From the NCBI RefSeq assembly GCF_024734405.1, contig NZ_CP059556.1, positions 3,968,001 to 4,032,000 on the forward strand: a DNA stretch of 64,000 nt. Direction: 5' to 3'. Position 1 is the first letter of the stretch. Every line of letters begins with the position of its first letter. Both the position numbers and the translations under genes were made by a program. This document shows positions 2,367-51,366 of this stretch, one piece after another. Below the pieces are notes generated by a model. That model worked only from the letters and a program-made list of their open reading frames with translations, ran no database searches and had not been told where the DNA came from. Source of the DNA: Saccharopolyspora gregorii (lineage in GTDB: Bacteria > Actinomycetota > Actinomycetes > Mycobacteriales > Pseudonocardiaceae).

Positions 2367-2520
2367 GTCAGCGGCGAAGCCGCTAGCAACGACCCAGCAC
2401 TCAACCGGACCACCCGCGGGTTCTCAGCGTTCTCCTCGCGAGGACAGCGTTTTCTCCTGTGGCGGAGCCACCGGTGAAAACGATCCCGCAGCGAGGAGGA
2501 CGCTGAGGTTCCGCCACCCG
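2367..2520 (+). repeat. 155-bp nested-hairpin repeat, copy A
   Basis: First of four related intergenic elements (others at 6475, 46711 and 51212). It starts with GTCAGCGGCGAAGCCGCT, runs through CCACCCGCGGG, and then forms an outer stem (2423-2438 with 2492-2507, 15 of 16 pairs perfect). An inner hairpin (CGTTTTC with GAAAACG) sits inside it around TGGCGGAGCCA. It ends in GGTTCCGCCACCCG. It sits between iorB and iorA inside a likely operon. No gene is visible in the element itself. Confidence 0.85.
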
Positions 2521-2554
2521 CCCCGCAAAGCAGGACGACCCGCAAACACGAGAC

Positions 2555-4915
2555 TCAGTAAGCGAAGTCCAGGCCGTTGGTGGGTGATTGCGGCACGGGA
2601 GGCACCACCGGCTTCGGATCGAAGCTCAACGTCCCGTGGTTGATGGGGAAGCTCGTCGGCATCGTGCCGGTCGCCGCCCCGTAGGCGCAGGCCGTCGCCG
2701 CCATCGACGCGGGCACCCCGAACTCCCCGGCACCGCCCGGTTTTCCGGTGGTGGGCGGCATGATGATGACCCGCACGTCGGGCGGGGCGTTCCACTGCCG
2801 GGTGTAGAAGTAGTCATCCCAGCTGCCTTCGAGGAACGTGCCGTCCTTGAGGTGCAGGCTGGAGGTGAGCGCCTGCGCGATGCCGTCGGAGATCCCGCCC
2901 TGCATCTGCGCTTCCAGTCCGCGCGGGTTGAGCGCGAGCCCGGTGTCGACGGCGAGCACCACCTTCGTCACGCGCGGCCCGGTGACGGCGTTGCGGATCT
3001 GCCGGTTCACCGTCTCGGGCCGGCAGTCGATCTCCACGAGGACCGCGACGGCGCCCTTGTACTCCTTGTGCACGGCGATGCCCTGCGCGCAGCCGTCGGG
3101 CATCGACCGGCCCCACTCCCCTTCCTCGGCGACCTCGTCGAGCACCGCGATCAGGCGTTCGTCGTCGAGGAAGGAGCGGCGGAACTCGTAGCGGTCCTTG
3201 CCCATCTTCGCGGCCAGCTGGTCGACGATGAGTTCCTGGGCGGTGCGCACGTCCGGGTTGAACAGGTTCCGGTTGGAGCCGGTGGGGAACGTGTCGTACT
3301 GCATGATCTCGTTGAGCAGCTGGGTGGTGACCCCGAACTTGTAGGGCACGCCGACGGTCAGCTCGAACACCGGCACCGAGAACGCGGCGAAGTTGCCCAG
3401 CCCCAGCGGGGGCAGCCGGGCGGCGACGGACGTGATCGCCTCGGCGAAGCCCATCGTGTAGTCGGTGGCGATGCTGGTGTGCCGCTGCTCGAAGGTGAGC
3501 ACCTTGTCGTCCACGTAGCTGGCGCGGATGCGCGAGGTGCACATCGGGTGGGTGCGGCCCTGGCGGCACTCGTCGGTGCGGTGCCACATGAGCTTGACGG
3601 GCTTGCCGATCTCCTTGGAGATCTCCACGGCCTCCAGCACGACGTCGTTGAACATGCGCCGCCCGAACGCGCCGCCGCCCTGCTGGACGTGCACGCTGAC
3701 CGCTTCCTGCGGCAAGCCCAGCTTCGCGGCGACCTCCTGCTTGCACAGGATCGGCGACTGCAGGCAAGACCAGATCTCGGCGCTGCCGGGACGCACGTCG
3801 GCGACGGCGGTGTTCGGTTCCAGCGCGGCGTTGTTGCGGAAGTGGAAGGTGAATTCACCCTCCACTGTGGACCCGGTGTCCGGGACGACGAGCGGGATCT
3901 CGGAGGCCTTGATCTTCTCCAGGATCGTGTCGTCGGATTCGCCGTCGACGGTGCCGGGTTCCCAGTTCACCTCCAACGCGCGGACCGCGTCGATGCACTG
4001 GCCGAAGGTGCGGGCGCGCACCGCGACCCCGGTGGAGATCGGGACGACGTCGGTGACGCCGGGCATCCCGCGCACCTCGTCGAGGTTCACCACCGACTCC
4101 GGGCCGCCCTTGATCGTCGACGGGCGGCACACCATCGTCGGCAGCGCGTCGGGGATGTCGAGGTCCATGCTGAACTTCTTGCGGCCGGTGACGGCGTCGA
4201 GGGCGTCGACCCGGTTGTGCGGTTTGCCGAGGACGCGGAACTCGCTCTCCGGCTTGAGCACCGCCTCGACCTGCTCGGTGACGTCGCTGGCGGCCTTCTG
4301 CGCGAGGTCGCCGTAGGGCAGCTGGGTGCCCGTGACCGAGCTGATCACGCCGAGCTTGCTGGTCAGCAGGCCGACGGGTTCGCCGAGCTCGTTCGCGGCG
4401 GCCTGCAACAACCGACCACGGGCGATGGCCGCGGCCACCCGGACCGGCGTGTAGATGGAGATCGCCGTGTTGGAGCCGGCGGTGAACTGGTTGAACAGCA
4501 GCTCGGGGCGGGCGTCGGCCAGCGACACCCGGACCTTCTCCACCGGCAGGTCCAGCTCCTCCGCGATGATCATCGCGACCATGGTGGTGATGCCCTGGCC
4601 GCTCTCGGTGCGCGGCATCTCGAAGGAGGCGGTGCCGTCCTCGTGCACCTGCACCGAGATGAGGTTCGAGGTGGGCAGCGCCGACTCGGTGAGCAGGTCG
4701 TTGAGGTCGAGGATGTCGGAGGGTTCCGGCAGCGCCGCGTGCGCGGTCGCCGGATCCGCGAGCTGCCCCAGCTGCGCGGCGGCGGCCACGGTGGGCGCGG
4801 CCAGCAGCAGGCCGAGGAACCGGCGGCGGTCGAGGCCGGTGGCCCCGGGGTCCGGGCTTTCCAGGCTGCTCGGCCAGGGTCCACGGCCTGGTCGGGAGGT
4901 GCGGCGCTGGTCCAT
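2555..4915 (-). CDS. iorB: molybdopterin-binding subunit of a molybdenum hydroxylase (IorB-like)
   Basis: Large catalytic subunit of a xanthine-oxidase-family enzyme (isoquinoline 1-oxidoreductase beta type), which hydroxylates an N-heterocycle or oxidises an aldehyde using a Mo cofactor. 786 aa, usual for the type. A twin-arginine signal is visible (DRRRFLGLLLAAPTVAAAA, about residues 28-46), so the enzyme is probably exported folded. Typical blocks include QQGGGAFGRRMF in the middle, and GGISDGIAQAL and GKPGGAGEFGVP, the latter carrying the catalytic Glu near the C terminus. It is transcribed ahead of iorA and divergently from a PucR-type regulator at 5183, which probably controls it. No XdhC maturation factor is adjacent. 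Confidence 0.9.
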   Translation of the reverse strand: MDQRRTSRPGRGPWPSSLESPDPGATGLDRRRFLGLLLAAPTVAAAAQLGQLADPATAHAALPEPSDILDLNDLLTESALPTSNLISVQVHEDGTASFEMPRTESGQGITTMVAMIIAEELDLPVEKVRVSLADARPELLFNQFTAGSNTAISIYTPVRVAAAIARGRLLQAAANELGEPVGLLTSKLGVISSVTGTQLPYGDLAQKAASDVTEQVEAVLKPESEFRVLGKPHNRVDALDAVTGRKKFSMDLDIPDALPTMVCRPSTIKGGPESVVNLDEVRGMPGVTDVVPISTGVAVRARTFGQCIDAVRALEVNWEPGTVDGESDDTILEKIKASEIPLVVPDTGSTVEGEFTFHFRNNAALEPNTAVADVRPGSAEIWSCLQSPILCKQEVAAKLGLPQEAVSVHVQQGGGAFGRRMFNDVVLEAVEISKEIGKPVKLMWHRTDECRQGRTHPMCTSRIRASYVDDKVLTFEQRHTSIATDYTMGFAEAITSVAARLPPLGLGNFAAFSVPVFELTVGVPYKFGVTTQLLNEIMQYDTFPTGSNRNLFNPDVRTAQELIVDQLAAKMGKDRYEFRRSFLDDERLIAVLDEVAEEGEWGRSMPDGCAQGIAVHKEYKGAVAVLVEIDCRPETVNRQIRNAVTGPRVTKVVLAVDTGLALNPRGLEAQMQGGISDGIAQALTSSLHLKDGTFLEGSWDDYFYTRQWNAPPDVRVIIMPPTTGKPGGAGEFGVPASMAATACAYGAATGTMPTSFPINHGTLSFDPKPVVPPVPQSPTNGLDFAY

Positions 4916-5182
4916 CGCGCTCCTTCCGCCGCCTCCCCGCGCGGCGGGGACGGCGATCGATCGACGTTGATCGGTGGTGGGATCGGTGACCCATCCTGAT
5001 CAGCACCGGCCCGCGGATCGAGGGCGTTCCGCCCACCGATCCGCACCGGATCTTGTGCGGATTGCCATCACGCGCGCCGCCGGATGGCCCATCGGGTGCT
5101 CGCACGACTGGTGGACTTGCCGTGATCCGGAAATTACCCTTCCCCGAACGGCGCTCGCGGGAGCCGCAAAGGAGCGGAGCTC

Positions 5183-6427
5183 ATGACCGACGAATCCACC
5201 ACGGAACAGCCAGGTCAGGACACCGGCGGCGGGGAGCAGCGGATGCTCGCCGGGCTGGCGCGGGCCTCGCTGGCGAGGGTTCCGGAGCTCGCCGACGCGC
5301 TGGTGGACCAGACGTGGGGTTCGGTGTACACCCCGGACGGACCGGTCGCCAAGGACGACCTGTGGCGATCCTGCCGGGACAACATCCACGGCATGCTCAC
5401 GACGCTGAGCGGCACCGGCCCGTCCCGGCCGGACCTGCTGGGGCCGGCCCGCAGCACCGGCATGCGCCGGGCGCAGCAGCACTGCCCGCTGGACTGGGTG
5501 CTGCACGCGTGGCGGCTCAGCGGCCAGGTGCTGTGGGCGGACATGGCCGAGCACACCGGGGCGCACGGCCCGCGGCACCTGCGGGAGCTGGTCGGTTCGG
5601 CCGGGGAGCTGTGGGGCGTCACCGAACGGTTCTCCATCGAGATGGCGCTGAGCTACCACGCCGCGGAGCAGGAACTGCTCGGCGGTGCGGAACTGCGCAG
5701 CACGATGATCATGGATGCGCTGCTGGACGCGCGGGCCGCCGAGGTGCGCGGGGAAGCCGAGCACCTGCTCGGGCTGGGACGCGGCAAGCGGTTCGTGGTG
5801 GCCGTCGCCGAAACCTCCGGCGAGCGCCCCGCATCACCGCGCGAACTCGCCGACGGGTTGCGGCGGCGCGGCCTGGACTCCACGTGGCGGCTGCGCACCG
5901 GCTGCCAGGTCGGGATCATCGGCGTCGGCGAGGGCCAGCCCGCCGAGGTCGCGGGCGCGCTGCGCGAACGCGCGGTGGCGCGCATCGGGGTGTCCCAGTC
6001 GCTGTCGGCGCTGATGGAGGTCGGCGCCGGTTACCGGATGGCGATGCTGGCGATGACGACGCTGCCCGCGCACCGGCCCGGCGCGGTGTCGCTGGACGAG
6101 TGCCTGCCCGACGCCTTGGCGCTGAGCTCGCCGGAACTGGCGGACCGGATGGTGCTGGTGACGTTCGGGCCGGTGCTCGCGCTGCCCACCGCGGAGCGGG
6201 AGGAGCTGCTGCACACGGTGTCGGTGTGGATCCGCTCGCTCGGTTCCACGCTGCGCGCGGCGAAATCGCTGTACTGCCACCGGAACACGGTGCTCAACCG
6301 GCTGCGGCGGATGGAGTCGCTGACCCACCTGGACCTCAGCGATGTGACGGTGTGGCCGCAGATCCTGCTCGCCCTGTCCATCCTCCGCCGCGAAGGCCGC
6401 CTCCCCGCCGAACCCGACACGCCCTGA
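5183..6427 (+). CDS. PucR/CdaR-type transcriptional regulator
   Basis: DNA-binding regulator of 414 aa. The N-terminal third is an all-helical region resembling the RsbRD-type sensor domain found in this family. The C-terminal 60 residues hold the PucR helix-turn-helix (RAAKSLYCHRNTVLNRLRRMESL followed by LALSILRRE). The family typically senses purines, sugar acids or other metabolites and controls a neighbouring catabolic gene. Here it is divergent from the molybdenum hydroxylase iorB, which is its likely target. The ATG is preceded by AAAGGAGC at a usable distance. No effector can be inferred from the sequence. Confidence 0.85.
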   Translation: MTDESTTEQPGQDTGGGEQRMLAGLARASLARVPELADALVDQTWGSVYTPDGPVAKDDLWRSCRDNIHGMLTTLSGTGPSRPDLLGPARSTGMRRAQQHCPLDWVLHAWRLSGQVLWADMAEHTGAHGPRHLRELVGSAGELWGVTERFSIEMALSYHAAEQELLGGAELRSTMIMDALLDARAAEVRGEAEHLLGLGRGKRFVVAVAETSGERPASPRELADGLRRRGLDSTWRLRTGCQVGIIGVGEGQPAEVAGALRERAVARIGVSQSLSALMEVGAGYRMAMLAMTTLPAHRPGAVSLDECLPDALALSSPELADRMVLVTFGPVLALPTAEREELLHTVSVWIRSLGSTLRAAKSLYCHRNTVLNRLRRMESLTHLDLSDVTVWPQILLALSILRREGRLPAEPDTP

Positions 6428-6474
6428 CCGGACCACGACCGCAGAACCCACCCACCGAGCCACATCGTCCGCCT

Positions 6475-6629
6475 GTCAGCGGCGAAGCCGCTGAGCTGAC
6501 GACCACGCACGCAACCGGACCACCCGCGGGTTCTCAGCGCTTTCCTCGCGAGGACGGCTTTTTCCCTCGTGGCGGAGCCACTCGGGAAAAGATCCCGCAG
6601 CGAGGAAAGCGCTGAGGTTCCGCCACCCG
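6475..6629 (+). repeat. 155-bp nested-hairpin repeat, copy B
   Basis: Second copy, same orientation as copy A. The outer stem is a perfect 16-bp match (6533-6548 with 6601-6616). The inner hairpin pairs TTTTCCC with GGGAAAA around GTGGCGGAGCCAC. It lies between the stop of the PucR-type gene and the end of the sialidase gene on the opposite strand, so it sits between two convergent genes and may end transcription from both sides. Confidence 0.85.
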
Positions 6630-6660
6630 ACCCACCCCGCAACAGGAGCGGGACGCACGA

Positions 6661-7853
6661 TCACACATCGCCGGTCGCGAAATACGCTCGGCAGCGGCCT
6701 TCGTCGTCGTAGTCGGTGGCGATCTCCAGGACCTGCGCCTCCCCGACCGGCAGCAGCGAGGAGCTGTAGTTCGGGCACGGGTCGTCGCGCGCCGCCGGGA
6801 CCTCCACGGGTGCGGGGATCGGGACGGGCGTACTCGAACCCGGCTGCTCGGTGACGAACAGCGTCGCCCCGTTGCCCTCGGCGACGGTCCCGTCCGCGTG
6901 CTTGAGCTCCTGGCCGACGGTGGGACCTTCCCGTCCGGCGTCACCGTGATCTTCGGCGCGTGCGCGAAGAACCGCCCGTCCTCGGTCGCGAGCAGCGTGC
7001 CGTGCGCGGCCGGATCGCCCCAGTCCGAGCCGTCGCCGGAGAGCCGGAAGTAGGCGGCGCAGCTGTACGGGTCGCCGCCACCGCAGATCTCGTAGGACAG
7101 GTAGTGGCGGCCGTCCGGCAATGGCCGCACCACCGCCATCCCGGGTCGCAGGTCGCCTTCCGGGACCTGCACCACCGGTTCCGGCGCGCCCCAGTTCACG
7201 CCGTCGGTGGAGGTGGTGCGGTGCAGCACCTGGCTGTGGCCGGGCTGGTTCTCGTCGGCGTAGTAGCAGCCGAGGGTTCCGGCGGCGTCCACGGCCAGCT
7301 CCGGTTCCCACATGCCACCGGTGCCGGTGGCGGTCGCGCAGGTCGACAGGTACGTCCAGGTGCGACCGCGGTCCTGGCTCTGGAACACCGGCAGCCGCAT
7401 CCGCCGGTCGGTCTCCTGGTCGGCGCCCGCGCTGCCCGTCCACAGCAGCGTCCCCGCGGGCAGATCTCCCACCGGGCTCGGCAGTTCCAGCAGGGAGCCG
7501 CAGCACAGGCCGTCGCTGAAGCCGTCATCGGTGATGCGGCCGACCTCGGTGAAGGTGACGCCGTCGTCGGTGCTCTCGTAGAGGGGGACGGAACCGCCGC
7601 CGGGCCCGAAGCTCACCGTCGCCGTCAGCACCGCCCCTGATTCCTCGCCCGCGTGCCGCAGCCGGACCGTGGTCGGGTAGTAGGCCACGTCGTCGGACAG
7701 CGGGGTCCCCGTCGCGGCCGGTGCCACCGCCGATCCGGTCCCGTCCGCCGGCCCGGCCTCCCTCGCTGATCCGGCCCCCGCCGCCGATCCGGGCAGCGCC
7801 ATCGCCGCCAGCACCCCGCACAGCAGCAGCATCCCCGGTCTCGCACGCCGCAT
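6661..7853 (-). pseudogene. secreted sialidase-like protein, frameshifted near 6926
   Basis: Secreted BNR-repeat (sialidase-fold) protein related to actinomycete exo-alpha-sialidases. The signal peptide is MRRARPGMLLLCGVLAAMALPGSAAG. Asp-box-like blocks are visible (STDDGVTFTEVG, SQDRGRTWTYLS, TSTDGVNWG). The frame reads sensibly to ITVTPDGK, where the continuation moves to another frame and runs on as GPTVGQELKHADGTVAEGN to the end at 6661. Adding one base restores an ORF of exactly 398 codons. The short run CC at 6926-6927 should then be CCC, so this is either a real recent inactivation or a sequencing error. The start at 7853 has an AAGGGGA ribosome binding site. It lies just downstream of the fuconate dehydratase gene on the same strand. 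Confidence 0.8.
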
Positions 7854-7960
7854 CGGTTCCCCTTCCGCCCAGCCCACGAGCGCACCCGCTCGATGATCAG
7901 GGGGAAGTCTGCCCGTTCCGGGCGGTTCGCGGTAGCCGCCGACAGTGGCAGCCCGCGGGC

Positions 7961-9265
7961 TCACCGCCCCGCCCACTCCGGGCCGTCGGGGAAGCGGAAG
8001 CGGCGCAGCGACTCGGGCAGGATCCGCGCGCTGTAGCCCGGTGCGTCCGGTGGCAGGTAGCGCGGGCCGCGCAGCCGCACCGGGTCGGCGAAGTGCTCGT
8101 GCAGGTGGTCCACGTACTCCACCACCCGCCCGTCCATCGACCCGCTCACCGCCACGTAGTCGAAGATCGACAGGTGCTGCACCAGTTCGCACAACCCCAC
8201 TCCCCCGGCGTGCGGGCACACCGGTACCCCGCGCGCCGCGGCCAGCAGCAGCACCGCGACGGCCTCGTTGACCCCGGCGAGCCGGCACGCGTCGAGCTGG
8301 CAGACGCCGATCGCCTCCGCCTGCAGGAACTGCTTGAACATGACGGCGTTGTGCGCGTGCTCGCCGGTCGCGACGCGGGTGGGGGCGATGGCGCGCTGGA
8401 TCGCGGCGTGCCCGAGCACGTCGTCGGGGCTGGTGGGTTCCTCGAACCAGTGGACGTCGTGCTCGGCGAGGCCGCGGTGCCAGCGGATCGCCTCCGCCAC
8501 CCCGAGCGCCTGGTTCGCGTCGATCATGAGGCGGCGGTGCGGGCCGAGCTCCTCGCGGGCGATGCGGCAGCGCCGCCGGTCGTCGTCCAGGTCCGCGCCG
8601 ACCTTCAGCTTCACCGAGTCCCAGCCCGCGGCGACCGCGTCCCGGCACCGCCGCCGCAGCTTCGCGTCGTCGTAGCCGAGCCAGCCCGCGCTGGTGGTGT
8701 AGGCCGGGTAGCCGCTCTCGCGGACGCGCCGCTCCCGCTCGGCCCGGCCGGGTTCGGCGCGGCGCAGCAGGTCCAGGGCCGCCGCCGGGCTCAGCTCGTC
8801 GCGCAGGTAGCGCCAGTCCACCAGGTCCACGATGCGGTCCGGCGCCATGTCGGCCAGCAGCTTCCACACCGGCCGGTCCGCGAGCTTCGCCGCCAGGTCC
8901 CACACCGCGTTCACCACGGCGGCCGTCGCCAGGTGCAGCACCCCCTTGTCCGGGCCGAGCCAGCGCAGCTGGCTGTCGGCGGCCAGGTGCCGGGCGAAGC
9001 CGCCGAGGTCCGCGGTGATCTCCTCCACCGGCATCCCGCGGACCCGGCGGGCGACGACCTCCACGGCGGCCACGACGAGCTCGTTGCCGCGGCCGATGGT
9101 GAAGGTGAACCCGTGGCCCTCGGGGACCCGAGGGTGGTCGGTGCGCAGCACCAGGTAGGCCGCCGAGTAGTCCGGCGCCGGGTTCGTCGCGTCGGAACCG
9201 TCGAGCTCCCGCGAGGTGGGGAACCGCAGGTCCACGGTCTCGAAGTCCAGGATGCGGGCGGTCAT
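7961..9265 (-). CDS. L-fuconate dehydratase (enolase superfamily)
   Basis: 434 aa enzyme of the mandelate-racemase branch of the enolase superfamily. It is expected to dehydrate L-fuconate to 2-keto-3-deoxy-L-fuconate. Catalytic blocks are clear: KLKVG (Lys base), DANQ, FEEPTSPDD and GEHAHN (metal ligands), and CPHAGGVGL (His base). The long insert LVDWRYLRDELSP and the motif YTTSAGWLGYDD are characteristic of fuconate dehydratases. The ATG at 9265 has a GAGGAG site. The neighbouring downstream gene is a sialidase-like secreted protein, which hints at use of sugars released from glycans; no other fucose genes are in the window. Confidence 0.88.
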   Translation of the reverse strand: MTARILDFETVDLRFPTSRELDGSDATNPAPDYSAAYLVLRTDHPRVPEGHGFTFTIGRGNELVVAAVEVVARRVRGMPVEEITADLGGFARHLAADSQLRWLGPDKGVLHLATAAVVNAVWDLAAKLADRPVWKLLADMAPDRIVDLVDWRYLRDELSPAAALDLLRRAEPGRAERERRVRESGYPAYTTSAGWLGYDDAKLRRRCRDAVAAGWDSVKLKVGADLDDDRRRCRIAREELGPHRRLMIDANQALGVAEAIRWHRGLAEHDVHWFEEPTSPDDVLGHAAIQRAIAPTRVATGEHAHNAVMFKQFLQAEAIGVCQLDACRLAGVNEAVAVLLLAAARGVPVCPHAGGVGLCELVQHLSIFDYVAVSGSMDGRVVEYVDHLHEHFADPVRLRGPRYLPPDAPGYSARILPESLRRFRFPDGPEWAGR

Positions 9266-9326
9266 CGGCGGCTCCTCGCTGCGGCGGCTCCTGCTCGAAC
9301 CCACCAGATGACCCGGCCACGCGCAA

Positions 9327-9360
9327 GGAGGAATCCCGTTGCCCCGCACGGGATTCCTCC
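9327..9360 (-). terminator. 13-bp hairpin terminator after the DJ-1/PfpI gene
   Basis: GGAGGAATCCCGT at 9327-9339 pairs perfectly with ACGGGATTCCTCC at 9348-9360. It lies just past the stop of the PfpI-like gene and before the fuconate dehydratase start on the same strand, so it probably separates the two transcripts. Confidence 0.7.
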
Positions 9361-9374
9361 ATCCGGACCTGCGC

Positions 9375-10073: not shown

Positions 10074-10169
10074 CAGTCCTCCGTCGTTCGATCCGATCAC
10101 CTCACGCTAGGAGCGATCGACTCCCCGGAACCGGGGTGGAACGGCCAGGTTCCGCCGGATTCCGGCCGC

Positions 10170-14566: not shown

Positions 14567-14640
14567 GCCGCGCTTCCCGGGGAGTTCCGGAGCGCGGAAC
14601 CGCCGGAGAACGCGGGGTCTCCCGACGGCGGTCTCCCGAC

Positions 14641-14725
14641 GGCACGGGGCTTCCAGCGGCACGGGGCTTCCGACGGCACGGGGCTTCCGACCGCACAGGG
14701 CTTCCGGCGGCACGGGGCTTCCGGA
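14641..14725. repeat. 17-bp tandem repeat, five units
   Basis: Five consecutive units of about GGCACGGGGCTTCCGAC (14641-14725), with one to three differences per unit. They are preceded by two copies of GGTCTCCCGACGGC. It is non-coding and directly downstream of the cofGH terminator. There are no spacers, so it is not a CRISPR array. Confidence 0.8.
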
Positions 14726-15530: not shown

Positions 15531-17342
15531 ATGAAGATCTTCGGTAGAACCGAGACCCGCCCGCGGCAGGCGGTGCTGGCGCTGGCGACGGCGTCGGCCG
15601 TGGCCGCAGGGCTCGTCACCGTCACCGCCGCGGGGGCAGAGCCGCAGGCTCCGGCGCCGCAACCGGCGCAGGCGGTGCGCGACACCGACCCGAAGAACCC
15701 GGACTTCGGTCCCAACACCTACATCGCCACCCCGTCCACTCCCGCGGGCGAGTTGCAGGGCAAGCTCGACGAGATCGCCGAGCGCCAGCACACCAACCAG
15801 TTCGGTCCCGAGCGCGACGCCGTGCTGTTCCAGCCCGGCGACTACTCGGCCGACGTGAACCTCGGCTTCAACACGCAGGTCGCCGGCCTGGGCATGTCGC
15901 CCGACGACGTGAACCTGAACGGCCACGTGCGGGTCGAGGCGGACTGGCTGGGCGAGGGCAACGCCACGCAGAACTTCTGGCGCACCGCGGAGAACCTCTC
16001 GGTCACGCCGCCCAGCGGCGAGATCGAGCGGTGGGCCGTCTCGCAGGCCGCTCCGTACCGGAGGATGCACCTGCGCGGCCAGATGCAGCTGTGGAACGGC
16101 TACGACGGCTGGGCCAGCGGCGGCTACATCGCCGACTCCAAGATCGACGGCCTGGTCGAGTCCGGTTCGCAGCAGCAGTTCCTCACCCGCAACAGCGAAC
16201 TGGCCGGTGGCTGGGACGGTTCGGTGTGGAACATGATGTTCACCGGCACGGTGGGCGCTCCCGCGCAGCACTTCCCGGACCCGTCGCACACCAACGTGCC
16301 GGAAACCCCGAAGCTGCGGGAGAAGCCGTTCCTGAACATCGGCGAGGACGGCGGCTACAACGTGTTCGTCCCCGCGCTGCGGGAGAACACCCAAGGGGTC
16401 AGCTGGGCGAACGGCGCACCGGAAGGTGAGCAGATCTCGCTGGCGGACTTCTACGTCGCCAAGGAGGGCGACAACGCCGCGACGATCAACGCGGCGCTGG
16501 CCGAGGGCAAGCACCTGCTGTTCACCCCCGGCGTCTACCACCTCGACGACACGATCAAGGTCGACAACCCGGACACCGTGGTGCTCGGCATCGGCATGGC
16601 CTCGCTCGTCCCCGACACCGGCAAGCCCGCGGTGTCGGTGGCCGATGTGGACGGCGTGAAGCTGGCCGGGCTGTTCATCGACGCCGGTGAGCAGAACTCG
16701 CCGTCGCTGATGACCCTCGGCGAGGAGGGCGCGGACCAGAGCCACGCGGAGAACCCGACGCAGCTCTCGGACGTGTTCTTCCGGATCGGCGGCCCCGGCG
16801 TGGGCAAGGCGACCAACACGCTGACCGTCAACAGCAACGACGTGCTGCTCGACCACTCGTGGATGTGGCGCGCCGACCACGGCGACGGTGTCGGCTGGGA
16901 CGTCAACACCGCCGAGACCGGCCTGATCGTGAACGGCGACAACGTCACCGCGCACGGCCTGTTCGTGGAGCACTACCAGAAGAACAACGTGGTGTGGAAC
17001 GGCAACGGCGGCCGCACCTACTTCTTCCAGAACGAGTTCCCCTACGACCCGCCGGACCAGGCGGCGTGGGGCGGCGACGGCGGCTGGGCGGCCTACAAGG
17101 TCGCCGACGACGTCACCGACCACGAGGCGTGGGGCCTGGGCAGCTACTGCTTCTTCGACACGAACCCCGAGGTCACGGCCGCGCGTTCGTTCGAGGTTCC
17201 GGTGAACCCGGGCGTCAAGATGCACGACCTCGTGTCCGTCTCGCTGGGCGGCACGGGAACGATCGACAAGGTCATCAACGATCAGGGCGACACCGCCAAC
17301 GGTGACAACCAGATCAGCTACGTCCCGGAGTACGGCGGCTGA
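15531..17342 (+). CDS. secreted right-handed beta-helix protein (GH55-like)
   Basis: 603 aa secreted protein. The signal peptide is visible (MKIFGRTETRPRQAVLALATASAVAAGLVTVTAAGA). The rest resembles actinomycete secreted pectate-lyase-fold proteins, often mislabelled adenylyl cyclase or coagulation-factor-like. A repeated beta-helix architecture is suggested by blocks such as HLLFTPGVYHLDDTIKV, DTVVLGIGMASLVPD, VKLAGLFIDAGEQ and LLDHSWMWRADHGDG. The late NEFPYDPPDQAAW and GWAAYKV blocks are highly conserved in that group. Glycan binding or glucanase activity is plausible from fold only. The last 25 codons and the terminator are duplicated 2.3 kb downstream at the end of the LysR gene. The start at 15531 was chosen because it begins the signal peptide. 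Confidence 0.8.
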   Translation: MKIFGRTETRPRQAVLALATASAVAAGLVTVTAAGAEPQAPAPQPAQAVRDTDPKNPDFGPNTYIATPSTPAGELQGKLDEIAERQHTNQFGPERDAVLFQPGDYSADVNLGFNTQVAGLGMSPDDVNLNGHVRVEADWLGEGNATQNFWRTAENLSVTPPSGEIERWAVSQAAPYRRMHLRGQMQLWNGYDGWASGGYIADSKIDGLVESGSQQQFLTRNSELAGGWDGSVWNMMFTGTVGAPAQHFPDPSHTNVPETPKLREKPFLNIGEDGGYNVFVPALRENTQGVSWANGAPEGEQISLADFYVAKEGDNAATINAALAEGKHLLFTPGVYHLDDTIKVDNPDTVVLGIGMASLVPDTGKPAVSVADVDGVKLAGLFIDAGEQNSPSLMTLGEEGADQSHAENPTQLSDVFFRIGGPGVGKATNTLTVNSNDVLLDHSWMWRADHGDGVGWDVNTAETGLIVNGDNVTAHGLFVEHYQKNNVVWNGNGGRTYFFQNEFPYDPPDQAAWGGDGGWAAYKVADDVTDHEAWGLGSYCFFDTNPEVTAARSFEVPVNPGVKMHDLVSVSLGGTGTIDKVINDQGDTANGDNQISYVPEYGG

Positions 17343-17397
17343 CCTCCCGCTCCTCCGACCGGTGCCCGGGTGCGCGATCCGCCCCCGGGCACCGGCG
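17269..17397 (+). repeat. direct duplication, copy 1 (gene end plus terminator)
   Basis: This segment covers the last 25 codons of the beta-helix gene and its terminator. It is repeated at 19590-19708 with only a few substitutions and one 9-base gap just after the stop codon. Confidence 0.9.
17359..17395 (+). terminator. 12-bp hairpin terminator after the beta-helix gene
   Basis: CCGGTGCCCGGG (17359-17370) pairs perfectly with CCCGGGCACCGG (17384-17395). An identical hairpin follows the LysR gene at 19670-19706. Confidence 0.75.
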
Positions 17398-18649: not shown

Positions 18650-19663
18650 GTGGACCTGAACCTGCTGCTGGTGCTCGATGCCCTGCTCGCGGACAACAGC
18701 GTGACCAGGGCGGCCGAACGGCTCGGCACCTCACCGGCCGCGGTCAGCCGCAAGCTCGCGAGCCTCCGGCGGATCGTGGGAGATCCGCTGCTCGTCCGCG
18801 CCGGGCAGGCGCTGCAACCCACGGCACGAGCCCTCGAACTCCGCGGCGAGGTGCGGGCGCTCATCGAGCGGTCCGAGTCGGTGCTCACCGCCACCGACGT
18901 CCCGGATCCGGCGACGCTGCACCGGGTGTTCACCGTGCAGGCAGGCGACTTCCTGCTCGCCGGGCTCGCCGCGCCGTTGATCTCCACGCTCCGGTCGCAG
19001 GCCCCGCACGTGAGCGTCGTCTTCCTGCCGGAGTCGTTCGAGGGCACACCCGCGCTCCGGCAGGGCGTGGTGGACCTGGAACTGGGCGTGCTCGGCCACC
19101 TCGACCCGGAGACGTGCTCCGAACGGCTGATCACCACGGCACTCGTGGGCGTGGCCCGGCAGGGCCATCCGCTGTTCGACGGTCCCATCGACGCCCGCCG
19201 GTTCGCCGAAGCCGACCACATCGGCACGTCCCGCACCGGCAAGCGCCACGGCCCCATCGACACGGCGCTGGCCGAGCAGGGCCTGCGCCGCCGGGTCCCG
19301 ATCACCGTGCCCGGTCACACCAGCGCGATGCTCCTGGCCAGGACGACCGACCTCGTCTGCCTCGCCCTGCCCGGAGCTCCCGCCGCCGACTGGCTCAACG
19401 CGCTCGGGCTGCGCACCTTCCCCGTGCCGCTGGACATCCCGCCGATCGAGATCGGCATGGCCTGGCACCCGCGCAACGACGCCGATCGCGCGCACCGGTG
19501 GTTCCGCGAGCACGTCCGCGGCATGCTCGCTCGGCAGCGCCCGGCCGACCTCGTGCCCGCCACGCCGCGCGGCGCGGGAACGACCGATGAGGTCATCGGC
19601 GATCAGGGCGACACCGCCAACGGTGACGACCGGATCAGCTCCGTCCCGGAGTACGGCGGCTGA
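18650..19663 (+). CDS. LysR-family transcriptional regulator with a duplicated tail
   Basis: 337 aa regulator. The N-terminal helix-turn-helix is typical (DLNLLLVLDALLADNSVTRAAERLGTSPAAVSRKLASLR), followed by a periplasmic-binding-like effector domain. The GTG at 18650 is preferred to the ATG at 18635 because GGTGGAGGTG precedes it and the family normally starts at this point. It is divergent from the YncE-like gene. The final residues (VIGDQGDTANGD through SVPEYGG) are nearly identical to the end of the beta-helix protein at 17342 and do not belong to LysR proteins. They come from a DNA duplication that also carried the terminator. The effector domain itself looks complete, so the protein may still work. 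Confidence 0.88.
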   Translation: MDLNLLLVLDALLADNSVTRAAERLGTSPAAVSRKLASLRRIVGDPLLVRAGQALQPTARALELRGEVRALIERSESVLTATDVPDPATLHRVFTVQAGDFLLAGLAAPLISTLRSQAPHVSVVFLPESFEGTPALRQGVVDLELGVLGHLDPETCSERLITTALVGVARQGHPLFDGPIDARRFAEADHIGTSRTGKRHGPIDTALAEQGLRRRVPITVPGHTSAMLLARTTDLVCLALPGAPAADWLNALGLRTFPVPLDIPPIEIGMAWHPRNDADRAHRWFREHVRGMLARQRPADLVPATPRGAGTTDEVIGDQGDTANGDDRISSVPEYGG

Positions 19664-19708
19664 CCTCGACCGGTGCCCGGGTGCGCGATCCGCCCCCGGG
19701 CACCGGCG
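19590..19708 (+). repeat. direct duplication, copy 2 (fused to the LysR gene)
   Basis: Second copy of the 17269-17397 segment. It starts inside the LysR reading frame, gives that gene its last 25 codons and stop, and carries the same hairpin terminator. The reading frame used is the same as in the beta-helix gene. Confidence 0.9.
19670..19706 (+). terminator. 12-bp hairpin terminator after the LysR gene
   Basis: CCGGTGCCCGGG (19670-19681) pairs with CCCGGGCACCGG (19695-19706). It is identical to the hairpin after the beta-helix gene and also lies at the end of the convergent methyltransferase gene. Confidence 0.75.
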
Positions 19709-43921: not shown

Positions 43922-44095
43922 CGCTCACCTCCGGCTCGGTCGCCCGCATCGATTCGCTGTCGACGCTAGGTGAGCAGTGCGTCCGCCCGCGTTGAGGAAC
44001 CTGGGAATCAGCTGGGAACCGGCGGACGGGGCGCTCGGACCCGCGCACCCGGTGGGACGATCTCGGCAGTACCGGAACCGTCGAGGGGAGTCGTG

Positions 44096-46381: not shown

Positions 46382-46390
46382 CCCTGCCAC

Positions 46391-46417
46391 CCGGTGCCCG
46401 GCCGGGCCGGGCACCGG
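46391..46417 (+). terminator. 13-bp hairpin terminator after the GH3 gene
   Basis: CCGGTGCCCGGCC (46391-46403) pairs perfectly with GGCCGGGCACCGG (46405-46417). The loop is a single base, so a few inner pairs would open. Confidence 0.65.
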
Positions 46418-46469
46418 GGCGCCGCGCCCCGCATCGAGCCGGTTCCGGGGCGCCCGGCACACTGGGGGT

Positions 46470-46676
46470 GTGGAGACGGTGAAGAACGCGCGCCCCCGGC
46501 TGGAAGCCCCATCGATCGCGGTCTGCGCGCACGTGGGCATCGGGGCGGACGACGCGGTGACGCGGGCGGCCCGCGACCGGTTGGGCAACGCCGTGGCGAA
46601 CTACCGGCGCCGCTGGACGACCGCGGACGGCGACCGCCCGGTGGAGAACCGACTCCTCCCCGGCGACTCCGCCTGA
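46470..46676 (+). CDS. possible 68-aa protein of unknown function
   Basis: Small ORF with a GTG start and a GGGG run just upstream. The sequence reads as a plausible soluble protein (PSIAVCAHVGIGADDAVTRAA, then NAVANYRRRWTTADGDRP), with a balanced composition unlike the Arg/Pro-rich shadow frames around it. I do not recognise a family. It lies between the GH3 terminator and repeat copy C. Confidence 0.45.
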   Translation: METVKNARPRLEAPSIAVCAHVGIGADDAVTRAARDRLGNAVANYRRRWTTADGDRPVENRLLPGDSA

Positions 46677-46710
46677 CCTGCCGTCTTACCTCTCGATCTG
46701 CATAGCACTG

Positions 46711-46865
46711 GGGTGGCGGAACCTCAGCGGTCCCCTCGCTGCGGGATCTTTTTCCCGAGTGGCTCCGCCACGAGGGAAAGAGCCGTCCTCGCGAGGGAAC
46801 CGCTGAGAACCCGCGGGTGGTCGGTCTGCGTGCGTGGTCGTCGGCTCAGCGGCTTCGCCGCTGAC
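46711..46865 (-). repeat. 155-bp nested-hairpin repeat, copy C (inverted)
   Basis: Third copy, in the opposite orientation to A, B and D, and closest in sequence to copy B. The outer stem (46723-46738 with 46792-46807) pairs at 15 of 16 positions; the inner hairpin pairs TTTCCC with GGGAAA around GTGGCGGAGCCAC. The motif GGTTCCGCCACCCG recurs beyond the core at 46911-46924, so this copy is flanked by GGGTGGCGGAAC and its complement like terminal inverted repeats (46711-46924). Confidence 0.85.
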
Positions 46866-46943
46866 AGGACGCGGAGACGACCCGCCGGGCGGGTTCAGGG
46901 CAGGCAGTGCGGTTCCGCCACCCGATCCCGAAGCGCCTGAAGT

Positions 46944-48269
<1,326 letters not shown>

Positions 48270-48421
48270 CAGTTCGACACTCCCGCGCGGCCGCGCTGCG
48301 CGCCGACCCGATCCGTTCCGTTCCGTTCCACCGGGGAGGGCCGTGCGGCCGCCGCCGCACGCCTACCCGCGGCGCCCGGAGCAGTACACCAGCTCGCCCG
48401 GGACCACCCGGGACCGGCCGG

Positions 48422-49417
48422 TCAGCGCTGCATGGCCGCCGCGAACAGCGGCACCACGCGATCGAGGGCGTAGGAGGTGCCGACGACGGTGGCGCTGGCG
48501 AAGGACTGCGACACCACCTCGTCGGTGAACACCAGGTCCCGCCCGTCCCGCACCGACGGCACCGACCGGTACAGCGGATCGTCGATGAGGTCCTGCGGGT
48601 CGTAGCCGATGGTGGTCATCACGGTCAGGTCCGCGTCGAGCAGGTCCAGCCGCTCGTTCGAGATCGGCACCGAGAACGCGCTGGTCGCCAGTTCCTCCAC
48701 CCGCGGCGAGTTGCGGAAGCCGAGGGCCCGCATGAAGTCGATCCGGCTGGTGCCCGCCCGGTAGGCGCCGAAGCCGCGGACGGTGCGCGCACCGACGACG
48801 TTGGTGGCGTCGGCGAACTCGGGGTGTTCCTGCCTGGCCCGCGCGAACTTCGCGTCCAGGTCGGCGCGCAGCCGCTGCGCCTCCTGCTGCTCGCCGAGCG
48901 CAGTGCCGATCAGGTCGAGCTGCTGCTGCCAGGAGGTGGTGTACTGCTCGGCACCTTCGGGGATGCTGACCACGGGCACGCCGAGCCCGGCGAGCTGGTC
49001 GTAGCGGTCCCGCGTGCCGCTGGCCCTGGTGTCCAGGATCAGGTCGGGGGCGAGTCCGGCGAGCCGTTCCATGTTCACTTCGAGGGTGCCGAGCATCGGC
49101 GGCGGCGCGGGTTCGTAGCGCTGCTGCACCCACTCCCCCAGTCCGTCGCCGCCGACGCCGAGCCAGTCCGCGGTGCCGATGGGCTGCACGCCGAGCGCGA
49201 GCGCGACCTCGGCGTCGCCCCAGCCGAGGGTGACGACCCGCTGCGGCCGCTTCGGGATGGTGACCTCGCCGAAGGCGGTGGACACGGTGACCGGGTCCCA
49301 CCCGTCGTCGCCGTCGGTCCCGCCGGGCGCGGGCGGTGCGGCCGAGCAGCCCGCGACGATCAGGAGCGCGCTGAGCAGGGCGGTGACCAGGGCGGCACCG
49401 CGGGGACGGGCAGGCAT
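48422..49417 (-). CDS. iron-siderophore ABC transporter substrate-binding lipoprotein
   Basis: 331 aa binding protein. The signal peptide ends in a lipobox (LLIVAGC, lipid Cys near residue 24). The FepB/BtuF-type fold is visible: VTIPKRPQRVVTLGWGDAEVALALGVQPIG, LAPDLILDTRASGTRDRYDQLAGLGVPVVSI and FVFTDEVVSQ-like end. The ATG at 49417 follows AGAGGAG. Directly upstream lies an iron-box-like sequence. No permease or ATPase gene is adjacent, so it must share a transporter encoded elsewhere. Confidence 0.9.
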   Translation of the reverse strand: MPARPRGAALVTALLSALLIVAGCSAAPPAPGGTDGDDGWDPVTVSTAFGEVTIPKRPQRVVTLGWGDAEVALALGVQPIGTADWLGVGGDGLGEWVQQRYEPAPPPMLGTLEVNMERLAGLAPDLILDTRASGTRDRYDQLAGLGVPVVSIPEGAEQYTTSWQQQLDLIGTALGEQQEAQRLRADLDAKFARARQEHPEFADATNVVGARTVRGFGAYRAGTSRIDFMRALGFRNSPRVEELATSAFSVPISNERLDLLDADLTVMTTIGYDPQDLIDDPLYRSVPSVRDGRDLVFTDEVVSQSFASATVVGTSYALDRVVPLFAAAMQR

Positions 49418-49434
49418 GAGCAACTCCTCTGGAC

Positions 49435-49453
49435 TTAACTTCGCCTACCCTAA
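49435..49453 (-). promoter_or_regulatory. DmdR/IdeR-like iron box
   Basis: On the minus strand TTAGGGTAGGCGAAGTTAA matches 15 of 19 positions of the actinobacterial iron box TTAGGTTAGGCTAACCTAA. It lies 17 bases before the start of the siderophore-binding lipoprotein gene, where iron-loaded repressor would block transcription. Confidence 0.75.
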
Positions 49454-49493
49454 CTTCCTGATCAGCACCGCCGTAGATGAAGGCGGTCACACG

Positions 49494-50489
49494 TCAGGCG
49501 GTGGTCACCACGTTGCGCAGCGGTTCCCCGGCGGCCAGCCGCCCGATGTTGGCGACGACGTCCTGCGCACGCCCGGCGAAGGTCTGCCGGGTGAGCCCGG
49601 AGGAGTGCGGGGTCATCAGCACGTTGCCGAGTTCGTGGAAGGGCAGCGAGCTCGGGTGCTTCACCTCGCCGGGCGCCGGGTAGTCGTACCAGACGTCGAT
49701 GGCCGCGCCGCCGATCGCGCCGTCGCGCAGCGCCTCGTACAGCGCCCGCTCCTCGACGACGGGTCCGCGGCCGACGTTGACGAGCACCGCGTGCTCGCGC
49801 ATCCGGGCGAGTTCGGCGGCGCCGATCAGCCCGGTGGTCTCCGCGGTCAGCGGGACGGAGAGCACCACGACGTCGGCGGCCTCCAGCAGCGCGTCCAGCC
49901 GGTCGATGGTGGCGGCCCACTCCAGCCCTTCGGCGGCGGCGTCCACCTCGCCGCGGCGGGTGACGGCGACGCCCGCGGCTTCGAATGCCTGGAACCGCCG
50001 CCAGGTGAGCTGTCCGATGTGGCCGAAGCCGACGAAGCCGACGGTGGCGCCGGTGAGCGAGTCGAGCCACGGCGCCCGCTGGTCGTAGACCGGGGTGGCC
50101 CAGCGGCCTTCGCGCAGCGCCGCGTCCTGCACGCGCAGTTCGCGGCGGACGACGGTGGTGGCGGCGACGACGTGCTCGGCGATGGACTTCTCGTGGTGGA
50201 AGGTGTTCGCGACGACCGTCCCGGCGGGCAGCGCGCCGGTGGCGATGCCGTCGGTGCCCGCGCCCGCGGCGTGCACGAGCTTCAGCCGGGTGCCGTGCGC
50301 GGCGAGCTCGGCGGGGAGGTCGCCGGAGACGTAGACGTCGGCGTCGGCCAGCGCGGCGCGCATCGCCGCGTCGTCCTGCCGGTCGGGCCAGTGCGCGGTG
50401 GCGCCGGCGGGGAGCCCGGCTTCGATCTCGGCGCGCAGCGGCAACAGGTTCGTGTCGGCGATGACGACGTTCAGGCCGGGGGCGGTCAT
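49494..50489 (-). CDS. D-isomer-specific 2-hydroxyacid dehydrogenase
   Basis: 331 aa NAD(P)-dependent dehydrogenase. The Rossmann motif is TVGFVGFGHIGQLTWRRF, the catalytic Arg is in LVNVGRGPVVEERALYEALR, and PHSSGLT holds the catalytic His. The catalytic Glu is in the DVWYDYPAPGE region. A likely ATG at 50489 follows GTGAGGAGA. The substrate (glyoxylate, hydroxypyruvate or other 2-oxoacid) is not shown by context; it is divergent from the DUF4442 gene. Confidence 0.92.
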   Translation of the reverse strand: MTAPGLNVVIADTNLLPLRAEIEAGLPAGATAHWPDRQDDAAMRAALADADVYVSGDLPAELAAHGTRLKLVHAAGAGTDGIATGALPAGTVVANTFHHEKSIAEHVVAATTVVRRELRVQDAALREGRWATPVYDQRAPWLDSLTGATVGFVGFGHIGQLTWRRFQAFEAAGVAVTRRGEVDAAAEGLEWAATIDRLDALLEAADVVVLSVPLTAETTGLIGAAELARMREHAVLVNVGRGPVVEERALYEALRDGAIGGAAIDVWYDYPAPGEVKHPSSLPFHELGNVLMTPHSSGLTRQTFAGRAQDVVANIGRLAAGEPLRNVVTTA

Positions 50490-50715
50490 GCGGTCTCCTC
50501 ACTGGCACCGCCACCGCGGAGGGGCGGTGCCGCTGATCGGGCGGCGCGGCCCATCTTCGCAGTCCAGCGAGGTCTTCCGGCCGGAACCGGGCGAGGATCA
50601 CGTGCCGCTCGGCCCCCGGCTGGTCCGCTGTGGACGGTGCACCCGGTTGACCGGAGGACGCACCGGCACATAGGTTACCGGCGAGTAATGCAACGAGCCC
50701 CGGAGGAGATCGCCG

Positions 50716-51192
50716 ATGCCCTCGACGCTGGAGCTGTGGCGCAGGCTCTCGCCCCGCCCGCTCGGGACCAGGCTGTTCTCCTGGGGCGTCTGCCTGCGCG
50801 CCCCGTACTTCCGCACGGTCCGCCCGCACGTCGTCCGGCTCGAACCGGGCCGGTGCGAGGTGCGGGCGAAGAAGCGCCGCGCGGTGCACAACCACCTCGG
50901 CACCTTCCACGCGATCGCCGCGTGCAACGTCGCCGAGATCGCCGCCGGGGTGCTCGCCGAGGCGAGCGTGCCCGCCACGCACCGCTGGATCCCGGTCGGG
51001 ATGCAGGTGCGCTACGTGGCGAAGGCCGCGACCGACGTGCACGGCATCGCCGAGCTGGACCCGCTGCCGGAGGCCGGCGAGGAACCGGCCGAGTGGGTGG
51101 TGCCGGTGCGCATCCTCGACACGGCGGGTACCCCGGTCGTCACCGCGGACATCACCCTGCGGGTCTCCCCGAAGAAGAAGCCCACCCCCTGA
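50716..51192 (+). CDS. DUF4442 hot-dog-fold thioesterase-like protein
   Basis: 158 aa protein of the hot-dog superfamily. Blocks are VRLEPGRCEVRAKKRRAVHNHLGTFHAIAACNVAEIAAGV and HRWIPVGMQVRYVAKAATDV, as in DUF4442 proteins. The Asn-His-Leu-Gly helix start is the usual acyl-CoA pocket. GGAGGAGATC precedes the ATG. Repeat copy D starts 20 bases after the stop. Confidence 0.9.
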   Translation: MPSTLELWRRLSPRPLGTRLFSWGVCLRAPYFRTVRPHVVRLEPGRCEVRAKKRRAVHNHLGTFHAIAACNVAEIAAGVLAEASVPATHRWIPVGMQVRYVAKAATDVHGIAELDPLPEAGEEPAEWVVPVRILDTAGTPVVTADITLRVSPKKKPTP

Positions 51193-51211
51193 CCACCCCG
51201 CCTCTCGGCCT

Positions 51212-51366
51212 GCCAGCGGCGAAGCCGATGCGCAGCGACCACCAGAGCGACCGGCACCGCCGCGCGTTCTCAGCGCCCTCCTCGCGAGGACGGCGTTCTC
51301 TCCTGCGGCGGAGCCACCGGTGAGAACGATCCCGCAGCGAGGAGGGCGCTGAGTTCCGCCATCCCG
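51212..51366 (+). repeat. 155-bp nested-hairpin repeat, copy D
   Basis: Fourth copy, same orientation as A and B. The outer stem is a perfect 16-bp match (51269-51284 with 51338-51353), and the inner hairpin pairs CGTTCTC with GAGAACG. Compared with copy A the inner stem has T-A changed to C-G in a paired position. It lies between the DUF4442 gene and the convergent MFS gene. Confidence 0.85.

What the first reader, a model, noticed from the sequence alone, without database searches (positions are those of the whole stretch)
2367..51366. Four-copy 155-bp intergenic element with nested, covarying hairpins
Copies at 2367-2520, 6475-6629, 46711-46865 (inverted) and 51212-51366 share head (GTCAGCGGCGAAGCC), middle (CTCAGCG...CCTCGCGAGGAC, TGGCGGAGCCA) and tail (GTTCCGCCACCCG), and have almost the same length. 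The 16-bp outer stem is perfect in B and D and has one mismatch in A and C, although its middle six bases differ in every copy. The inner stem also changes in pairs (CGTTTTC/GAAAACG in A, CGTTCTC/GAGAACG in D). Selection therefore acts on the fold, not just on the sequence. All copies lie just after stop codons. This could be a non-autonomous mobile element, a REP-like family, or a dispersed RNA or terminator module.
Basis: partly seen in the sequence, partly recalled or inferred. Interest (0 to 1): 0.75.

Follow-up and report, generated by a model that had tools for sequence, protein, structure and literature searches.

The report
Mobile stop-codon element with conserved fold
A small piece of DNA without any gene has copied itself over a hundred times to sites near gene ends in a soil bacterium, and it keeps a precise hairpin fold even though the ends that let it jump have largely worn away, which suggests that the fold itself does something useful.

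Summary
The window carries four of at least 127 well-scoring copies in this Saccharopolyspora-like genome.

The element was found in 38 of 150 sampled genomes of its family and, among 296 sampled genomes of the class, only in the home genome (few candidates scored per genome). In S. rosea, 18 of 30 loci read have terminal inverted repeats, 15 of them 229-231 bp apart, with CTNAG direct repeats; some are nested in other copies. An IS5-type insertion sequence of 960 bp has ends that begin with the same 13 nt. It is therefore a MITE.

At home the stop of an opposing gene lies 16-41 nt from the core in 91 of 106 copies with such a neighbour. The terminal repeats are near chance level there and no DUF4096 transposase was found, yet cores are 93% identical. 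G·T pairs are favoured on one strand (35:1 distinct arm pairs in other taxa).

Best reading: an orphaned, stop-codon-inserting MITE whose structured core is maintained. Mobility is well supported; an RNA function is inferred.

The parts
2367..2521 (+). Copy A, structured core (head hairpin, linker, long hairpin)
   Evidence: 168 bits
2368..2385 (+). Copy A, head hairpin (TCAGCGGC-GAA-GCCGCT..)
2423..2439 (+). Copy A, 5' arm of the outer stem (middle six bases vary between copies)
2491..2507 (+). Copy A, 3' arm of the outer stem; one T·G pair
2554..2558 (+). CTCAG beyond the 3' end of copy A, containing the stop codon (TCA) of the opposing molybdopterin-binding subunit gene 2555-4915; lies where the direct repeat of a complete element is expected
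   Evidence: expectation
6475..6629 (+). Copy B, structured core; opposing ORF 6661-7506(-) ends 31 nt beyond it
   Evidence: (176 bits)
46711..46865 (-). Copy C, structured core (inverted); opposing 68-aa ORF 46470-46676(+) ends 34 nt beyond it; one T·G pair in the stem
   Evidence: (173 bits)
51212..51366 (+). Copy D, structured core, more diverged (135.5 bits); left gene 50716-51192(+) stops 19 nt before it, no opposing stop near its 3' end

Best explanation
The element is a non-autonomous DNA transposon (MITE), about 230 bp when complete. It was spread by an IS5-type DDE transposase (DUF4096 + DDE_Tnp_1) that recognises ends beginning TGCCTGTCTTTGA and duplicates a CTNAG target. In these GC-rich genomes such targets often are stop codons (C-TGA-G). 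Insertion there duplicates the stop and leaves the gene whole, so copies end up in 3' ends and between convergent genes. Its interior is a head hairpin, a linker and a long two-stage hairpin with a strongly conserved internal loop. This fold is selected on one strand, most likely as RNA in or opposite the 3' end of the neighbouring genes (3'-end formation or mRNA decay). In the home genome the family is orphaned: the terminal repeats are near chance level and no DUF4096 transposase was found, but the cores are kept and their arms evolve in compensating pairs. Shown: the copies, terminal repeats and direct repeats (in S. rosea), nested insertions, IS with similar ends, stop-codon position, covariation, strand asymmetry. 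Inferred: mobilisation in trans by that transposase, transcription of the core, and its molecular effect.
For: Complete ends: 18 of 30 S. rosea loci read have both terminal repeats (<=4 of 15 mismatches), 15 of the 18 at 229-231 bp; 7 of 18 have a perfect 5-bp direct repeat, 8 differ at one base, 3 are worse. Nested insertions at CGCTGAG^GTTCCGCC of another copy: L354, L363 and L368, also L181 and L203 (partly the same places). An IS of 960 bp with 20-nt terminal repeats, the first 13 nt as in the element, sits inside copies in L169 and L235. Four of five close relatives of it in G017 are also inserted in copies, with CTNAG repeats. Stop codons: a right-hand opposing gene in 106 of 127 home copies, its stop 16-41 nt from the core in 91 of these 106; 29 of 31 in G001 (20-42 nt) and 60 of 68 in other taxa (24-59 nt) (126 copies, 117 with both neighbours called, measured from a point ~3 nt upstream, not fully de-duplicated). 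In S. rosea the stop lies inside the repeat itself in L361, L364, L366, L370, L374, L375. Core kept, ends lost: terminal-repeat identity 0.60 at each end against 0.54 and 0.59 for shuffled flanks (127 copies), core outside the covarying arms 0.93 (114 of 127). Covariation. One-strand wobble: middle stem GT 41, AC 8 cells at home; other taxa GT 79, AC 10, distinct arm pairs with only GT 35, only AC 1 (85 copies). Turnover: 3 of 43 G001 copies share a site with a home copy.
Against: No relative of the S. rosea transposase was found in the home genome or in five congeners at E<=1e-30, so mobilisation there is historical inference; other DDE families were not searched. The 5' terminal repeat at home is slightly above chance (0.60 against 0.54), so 'decayed' is not 'gone'. 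Outside the middle six pairs the home copies show no wobble asymmetry (26 GT, 27 AC, leaving out two positions fixed as G·T and one ill-paired position), and G001 copies are almost all Watson-Crick (0 GT, 1 AC). Distinct arm pairs are not independent events. The strand that favours G·T is antisense to the gene whose stop abuts the 3' end, so a simple 3'-UTR hairpin of that gene is not what the asymmetry predicts. Both strands fold well. A palindromic target does not explain why the 3' end rather than the 5' end faces the stop (tandem contexts 84 to 30 pooled over three sets). Copies at shared sites differ in leader and stems, which gene conversion or re-insertion would also give. No expression data were available.
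Confidence: 0.6

Rival explanations
1. A purely selfish MITE without function in the host. The arms look compensated because hairpin arms are corrected against each other by template switching during replication.
For: Mobility is well supported; arm correction would give paired changes without selection on RNA; a replication-direction bias exists (93 of 127 copies with the origin at dnaA).
Against: Arm correction should not favour T·G over C·A on one strand, yet distinct arm pairs with only GT outnumber only AC 35 to 1 in other taxa, and at home the GT excess is seen in both replication orientations (27:7 and 14:1). Cores stay 93% identical while the terminal repeats are near chance level, and the internal loop is strongly conserved across genera.
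Confidence: 0.17
2. The core is an old host 3'-end element (terminator or mRNA stabiliser) that multiplied by recombination. The IS5-type ends in S. rosea were acquired later and are not how the family spreads.
For: Tight 3'-end position across genera; a second end type (CTAG|CGCGTGTTTT...GAAACACTCC|CTAG) carries the same core in 3 of 30 S. rosea loci; ends near chance level at home; the three terminator-like sites found lie inside cores.
Against: 12 of 127 home copies have CCTGTCTTCGAA (<=2 mismatches) in the 5' flank against 0 in control flanks, 20 of 127 match a looser form and copy 3409553 has GTGAG on both sides; nested insertions with direct repeats; low sharing of sites between congeners (3 of 43).
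Confidence: 0.13
3. A REP/RAYT-type or IS200/IS605-type element moved as single-stranded DNA by a Y1 transposase.
For: Hairpins with strand-specific features, intergenic position, orientation bias relative to replication in own (93/127), G001 (42/65), G003 (15/20), G018 (15/20), S. rosea (46/70), G080 (7/9) (outside the home genome the origin was assumed at coordinate 0).
Against: No Y1_Tnp found in the home genome; terminal inverted repeats and direct repeats; in the majority orientation the strand that favours G·T would be the leading-strand template (my inference), the opposite of what PMC5371812 (passages) reports for IS200/IS605; G005 shows no bias (7/14).
Confidence: 0.05
4. The cores act as landing pads that draw CTNAG-specific insertion sequences away from genes; the conserved CTCAG/CTGAG in both stem arms is kept for that.
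For: ISs sit in the CTGAG of cores in two S. rosea loci and in four of five close G017 copies, and one G018 copy (L319) has next to it the sequence of a core's 5' arm.
Against: Does not explain compensating changes next to the CTNAG motifs, the one-strand wobble, or conservation in genomes where no such IS was found.
Confidence: 0.05

Closest known systems
RUP of Streptococcus pneumoniae (MITE paired with IS630-Spn1; PMC2229807, passages read)
   Same: 108 intergenic copies, non-coding, terminal repeats similar to those of an IS, target duplication, insertion into other mobile elements.
   Different: TA target and IS630 partner; here CTNAG and an IS5-type partner. The passage reports no structure/function signature for RUP beyond its ends; here a 154-nt core is found in 13 of 46 sampled genera of a family.
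ERIC and YPAL elements of enterobacteria (PMC2229807, passages read)
   Same: 127-168 bp intergenic elements forming long RNA hairpins; ERIC affects upstream mRNA stability in an orientation-dependent way.
   Different: No CTNAG repeats at stop codons are described in the passages; sequence similarity was not sought. ERIC function is measured, ours is not.
REP/RAYT systems (PMC3733652, passages; PMC2817692, search listing only)
   Same: High copy number, intergenic, downstream of genes, foldable; also targets for ISs (recalled).
   Different: REPs are 20-40 bp with a GTAG or CGTC tag and, for GTAG types, a Y1 transposase; none of these is met here.
IS5-family insertion sequences with DUF4096 and DDE_Tnp_1
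   Same: Ends that begin with the same 13 nt and CTNAG repeats in S. rosea.
   Different: The element has no transposase gene and carries an unrelated structured core.

Membership tests
MITE (non-autonomous DNA transposon) | Terminal inverted repeats | tested here: met
   18 of 30 S. rosea loci; only 20 of 127 home copies keep a 5' repeat with <=3 mismatches in 14, home average near chance
MITE (non-autonomous DNA transposon) | Target-site duplication | tested here: met
   CTNAG-like direct repeats: 7 perfect, 8 with one mismatch, 3 worse among 18; nested insertions show the empty site
MITE (non-autonomous DNA transposon) | Autonomous partner with the same ends | tested here: met
   IS in L169 and L235 of S. 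rosea shares the first 13 nt and the CTNAG repeats; no relative found in the home genome
MITE (non-autonomous DNA transposon) | Short and non-coding | tested here: met
   15 of 18 at 229-231 bp; none of 127 home cores lies inside a gene called with my own simple caller
MITE (non-autonomous DNA transposon) | Mobilised in trans by the partner's transposase | not testable with these tools
   needs a transposition assay
REP/RAYT | Y1 (HUH) transposase gene in the genome | tested here: not met
   PF01797: 0 in the home genome, rings in 5 of 14 control genomes; not searched in the other element-bearing genomes
REP/RAYT | 20-40 bp palindrome with GTAG or CGTC tag | tested here: not met
   Core of 154 nt, complete element ~230 bp, ends TGCCTG...CAGGCA; definition from PMC3733652 (search listing abstract and passages)
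Intrinsic terminator | Hairpin followed directly by a T tract | tested here: inconclusive
   1 and 2 terminator-like sites in two stretches, shuffles 1.7 and 0.9; all three lie inside copies A and C and use the T run of the inner stem; no T tract follows the head or the long hairpin as a whole
Known Rfam RNA family | Match at the gathering score | tested here: not met
   0 matches in the window; below-threshold hits for copy A are two miRNA models and rpsB, far under their cut-offs

The most novel reading that the evidence does not exclude
The core is a mobile structured RNA in its own right. One conserved, strand-specific fold has been carried through a bacterial family on at least two kinds of transposon ends (CTNAG-type and CTAG-type), is delivered to stop codons, and is then kept by selection in place after its ends decay. 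It could be a transposon-borne 3'-end regulatory RNA that hosts have domesticated about a hundred times per genome, or an RNA that takes part in transposition.
Probability: 0.27. Interest if true: 0.85.

Novelty: new variant of a known kind. Interest (0 to 1): 0.62.

Why it matters
MITEs are usually defined by their ends, and their interiors are often taken as dispensable (recalled). Here the interior is what persists: it covaries, is found in 13 of 46 sampled genera of a family, rides on two kinds of ends, and seems to outlive them. That makes the old question of whether small bacterial repeats do something for their host directly testable, with about 90 natural replicates in one genome at a near-fixed distance from stop codons. 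The stop-codon target is also a neat way for a transposon to insert without breaking genes. Saccharopolyspora and Amycolatopsis include industrial antibiotic producers in which, to my knowledge, 3'-end control is poorly known.

Tried and rejected
Rfam: nothing credible. Plasmids and phages by distant blastn with copy A: no match. Y1 transposase: none. Clean empty sites between congeners: genes align but intergenic DNA is too diverged, so site differences are seen (L054 against L016, in both directions) but not exact boundaries; nested copies in S. rosea solved this. 5'-truncated, retroposon-like insertion was considered because 3' ends are tight and 5' ends loose at home; I set it aside because the stop codon lies where the terminal repeat predicts and because S. 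rosea copies are full length at both ends. A conserved terminal motif at home, aligned on the stop codon: none, only a purine-rich stretch. Replication bias explained by gene direction: not enough, since convergent pairs alone give 53 of 75 (counts, p). Literature: nine searches, two of which returned nothing; no listed title or abstract describes this repeat. PMC3610266 (abstract and passages) has S. erythraea RNA-seq and reports 190 putative intergenic ncRNAs; the passages do not name a repeat and its tables were not available. PMC1590033 and PMC10969869 (passages) give general context.

Limits: the gene caller is mine (codon log-odds trained on window ORFs). The genome searches scored a capped number of candidates per genome: 150 at home and in S. 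rosea, 74, 20, 10, so copy numbers are lower bounds and absences are weak for genomes with few or diverged copies. G001 copies came from the top of the model's ranking, as did the G003, G005, G018 and G080 lists, where the origin was assumed at coordinate 0. It includes S. rosea loci, so it overlaps the S. rosea group, and it is not fully de-duplicated. From then on, 13 of 127 copies with cores outside 145-162 nt were left out of the core alignment. That GNA/GNNA loops are stable folds and the genome-size identity of G017 with S. erythraea are recalled. The ends of Amycolatopsis copies were judged by eye only.
Full report
Observation. The outer stem is perfect in B and D; the single departures in A and C are both T·G pairs. 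The consensus structure of 32 copies has a head hairpin, a ~30-nt linker and a long hairpin with an outer stem, a conserved internal loop (GAGGACAGC / GATCCCGCA), an inner stem and a small terminal hairpin. Six pairs in the middle of the outer stem change on both sides in 7-14 of 32 copies, while their neighbours have no two-sided change in those 32. The covariation score is 0.160, against 0.054 in shuffles (0 of 500 as high) and at most 0.068 when partners are slid. On 99 of 127 copies, in an alignment fitted to the model, it is 0.168 against 0.062 and 0.067. RNA folding of copy B gives z = -6.2 on the + strand and -5.1 on the other, whose minimum energy is even lower, so folding energy does not tell the strands apart.

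Number and range. A covariance model finds 145 matches in the 6.34-Mb home genome at E<=0.01; only 150 candidates were scored, so this is a lower bound. I used the 127 with at least 70 bits. The model matches 38 of 150 sampled genomes of the family, in 13 of 46 genera (20 candidates scored per genome), and among 296 sampled genomes of the class only the home genome (10 candidates per genome). In the closest 41 genomes it matches 10. Copy A had no match in plasmid or phage records, and the window no Rfam family at gathering score.

It moves. In S. rosea (a complete genome with 71 model matches) 18 of 30 loci read have terminal inverted repeats TGCCTGTCTTTGAAC / GTTCRAAGACAGGCA with up to 4 mismatches of 15; 15 of the 18 are 229-231 bp long, three are 221, 275 and 284. 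They are flanked by 5-bp direct repeats of the form CTNAG: 7 perfect, 8 with one mismatch, 3 worse. Some copies are inserted in other copies at CGCTGAG^GTTCCGCC, which shows the empty site directly (L181 and L203; L354, L363, L368). Two loci hold, at that same place, an IS of 960 bp with 20-nt terminal repeats that begin with the same 13 nt; its protein has DUF4096 and DDE_Tnp_1 domains, an IS4/5-type transposase. Relatives of the protein (E<=1e-30) occur in 9 of 60 genomes. The close ones in G017 and most of those in G018 have similar ends and CTNAG repeats, and four of five in G017 are inserted in copies of the element. A second end type in S. rosea, CTAG|CGCGTGTTTT...GAAACACTCC|CTAG, carries the same core in 3 of 30 loci.

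Where it lands. In the home genome none of 127 cores lies inside a called gene, 75 lie between convergent genes and only 6 between divergent ones; convergent pairs are 13 of 55 in the window (Fisher p = 1e-5). The striking feature is the distance from the core's 3' end to the stop codon of the opposing gene: 16-41 nt in 91 of the 106 copies that have such a gene, while the distance on the other side is broad. My caller missed the ORF next to copy B, which therefore counts among the 15 exceptions. The same holds in G001 (29 of 31 at 20-42 nt) and other taxa (60 of 68 at 24-59 nt). This is where the direct repeat should lie, given the S. rosea ends. In S. rosea the stop codon is inside the repeat in at least six loci (L361, L364, L366, L370, L374, L375). 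In the window, copy A is followed by C-TCA-G at the predicted place, the stop of a molybdopterin-binding subunit gene. So insertion at C-TGA-G duplicates the stop and spares the gene. Orientation is not random: among tandem contexts the 3' end faces the stop 31 to 15 at home, 15 to 8 in G001 and 38 to 7 elsewhere. I have no full explanation for this.

Replication bias. With the origin at dnaA (position ~1), 93 of 127 home copies point against the fork (p = 2e-7); convergent contexts alone give 53 of 75. The bias recurs in G001 (42/65), G003 and G018 (15/20 each), S. rosea (46/70) and a short G080 list (7/9), not in G005 (7/14); there the origin was assumed at coordinate 0. Orientation bias relative to replication is reported for several IS families whose transposases bind the sliding clamp (PMC5371812, passages), so this fits a transposon and does not need a special mechanism.

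The core outlives the ends. At home the terminal repeats are near chance level (0.60 identity at each end against 0.54 and 0.59 in shuffled flanks), while the core outside the covarying arms is 93% identical. A minority keep the 5' repeat: 12 of 127 match CCTGTCTTCGAA with <=2 mismatches, against 0 in control flanks, and 20 match a looser form. No protein like the S. rosea transposase and no DUF4096 domain was found in the home genome; other DDE families were not searched. Only 3 of 43 G001 copies share a site with a home copy. At one site shared with G003 (L071/L111), where the 3' flank aligns, the stem differs at three pairs, all compensated. Compensation in place is the simplest reading; gene conversion from another copy is the alternative. 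At the three sites shared with G001 leader and stems differ more widely, so re-insertion is possible there too.

Which strand. In the middle six pairs of the outer stem G·T exceeds A·C at home (41 to 8 cells; 13 to 4 distinct arm pairs, p = 0.049). Elsewhere at home there is no excess (26 to 27). Over the whole variable part of the stem it is 20 to 1 in S. rosea and 79 to 10 in other taxa, with 35 to 1 distinct arm pairs (the two sets overlap, and related arm pairs are not independent). G001 copies are almost all Watson-Crick and say nothing. The home excess does not flip with replication direction. Arm-against-arm repair or strand-blind selection should give equal numbers. In the head hairpin the loop is GNA or GNNA in 107 of the 113 copies of other genomes in which a head was found (of 126, G001 included), again a feature of this strand. 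I take this as selection on the + strand as a folded nucleic acid, most likely RNA. That strand is sense to a left-hand + gene but antisense to the gene whose stop abuts the 3' end, so it must be made by read-through from the left gene or from a promoter I did not find.

Verdict. It is a MITE by every feature I could test, with an IS5-type partner; REP/RAYT membership is not supported, and a terminator role is open rather than shown. What sets it apart is a covarying, strand-specific core that is spread over a family, rides on two kinds of ends and persists where the ends have nearly gone, and its stop-codon placement. None of nine literature searches listed a description of it, in a library that lacks most subscription journals.

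Noticed in passing
L216, L234, L222, L159 (inside or next to the inner hairpin): About 60 nt of a second repeat (GCGTCCGTGAGGGGTGGTGGTCGGGCTGGCGGGTGGG, with variants) is inserted in cores of Amycolatopsis, S. rosea and Halosaccharopolyspora; possibly another small mobile element that targets these hairpins.
   Followed up: no
L180, L200, L202, L218, L226, L230, L232 (Saccharopolyspora sp. NFXS83): A subfamily with a different head (such as TATGCGC..GCGCATA) preceded by CTTGCGGCCGAAGGCCGTGCCTG or close variants, i.e. the same long hairpin joined to another 5' module.
   Followed up: no
L235 4551-4962: Two cores in head-to-tail tandem with a 185-bp period next to the IS, joined at CTGAG|TGCCTGTC; looks like recombination or repeated insertion at the same CTGAG.
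   Followed up: partly
L289 against L013, L293 against L017, L316 against L115: Home and G001 both carry a copy at the same gene end, but with different leader and stems: independent insertion at the same stop codon or conversion of the whole element.
   Followed up: partly
window 17225-17346 and 19546-19667; palindromes 17359-17395 and 19670-19706: A 122-bp stretch repeated at 89% identity, each followed by the same 37-bp inverted repeat CCGGTGCCCGGGTGCGCGATCCGCCCCCGGGCACCGG.
   Followed up: no
window 14630-14723: Tandem repeat with a 17-bp period (GGCACGGGGCTTCCGAC).
   Followed up: no
window 1769-4915: Copy A lies between a molybdopterin-binding large-subunit gene and a 2Fe-2S subunit gene downstream of it on the same strand, i.e. 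possibly inside one operon.
   Followed up: partly
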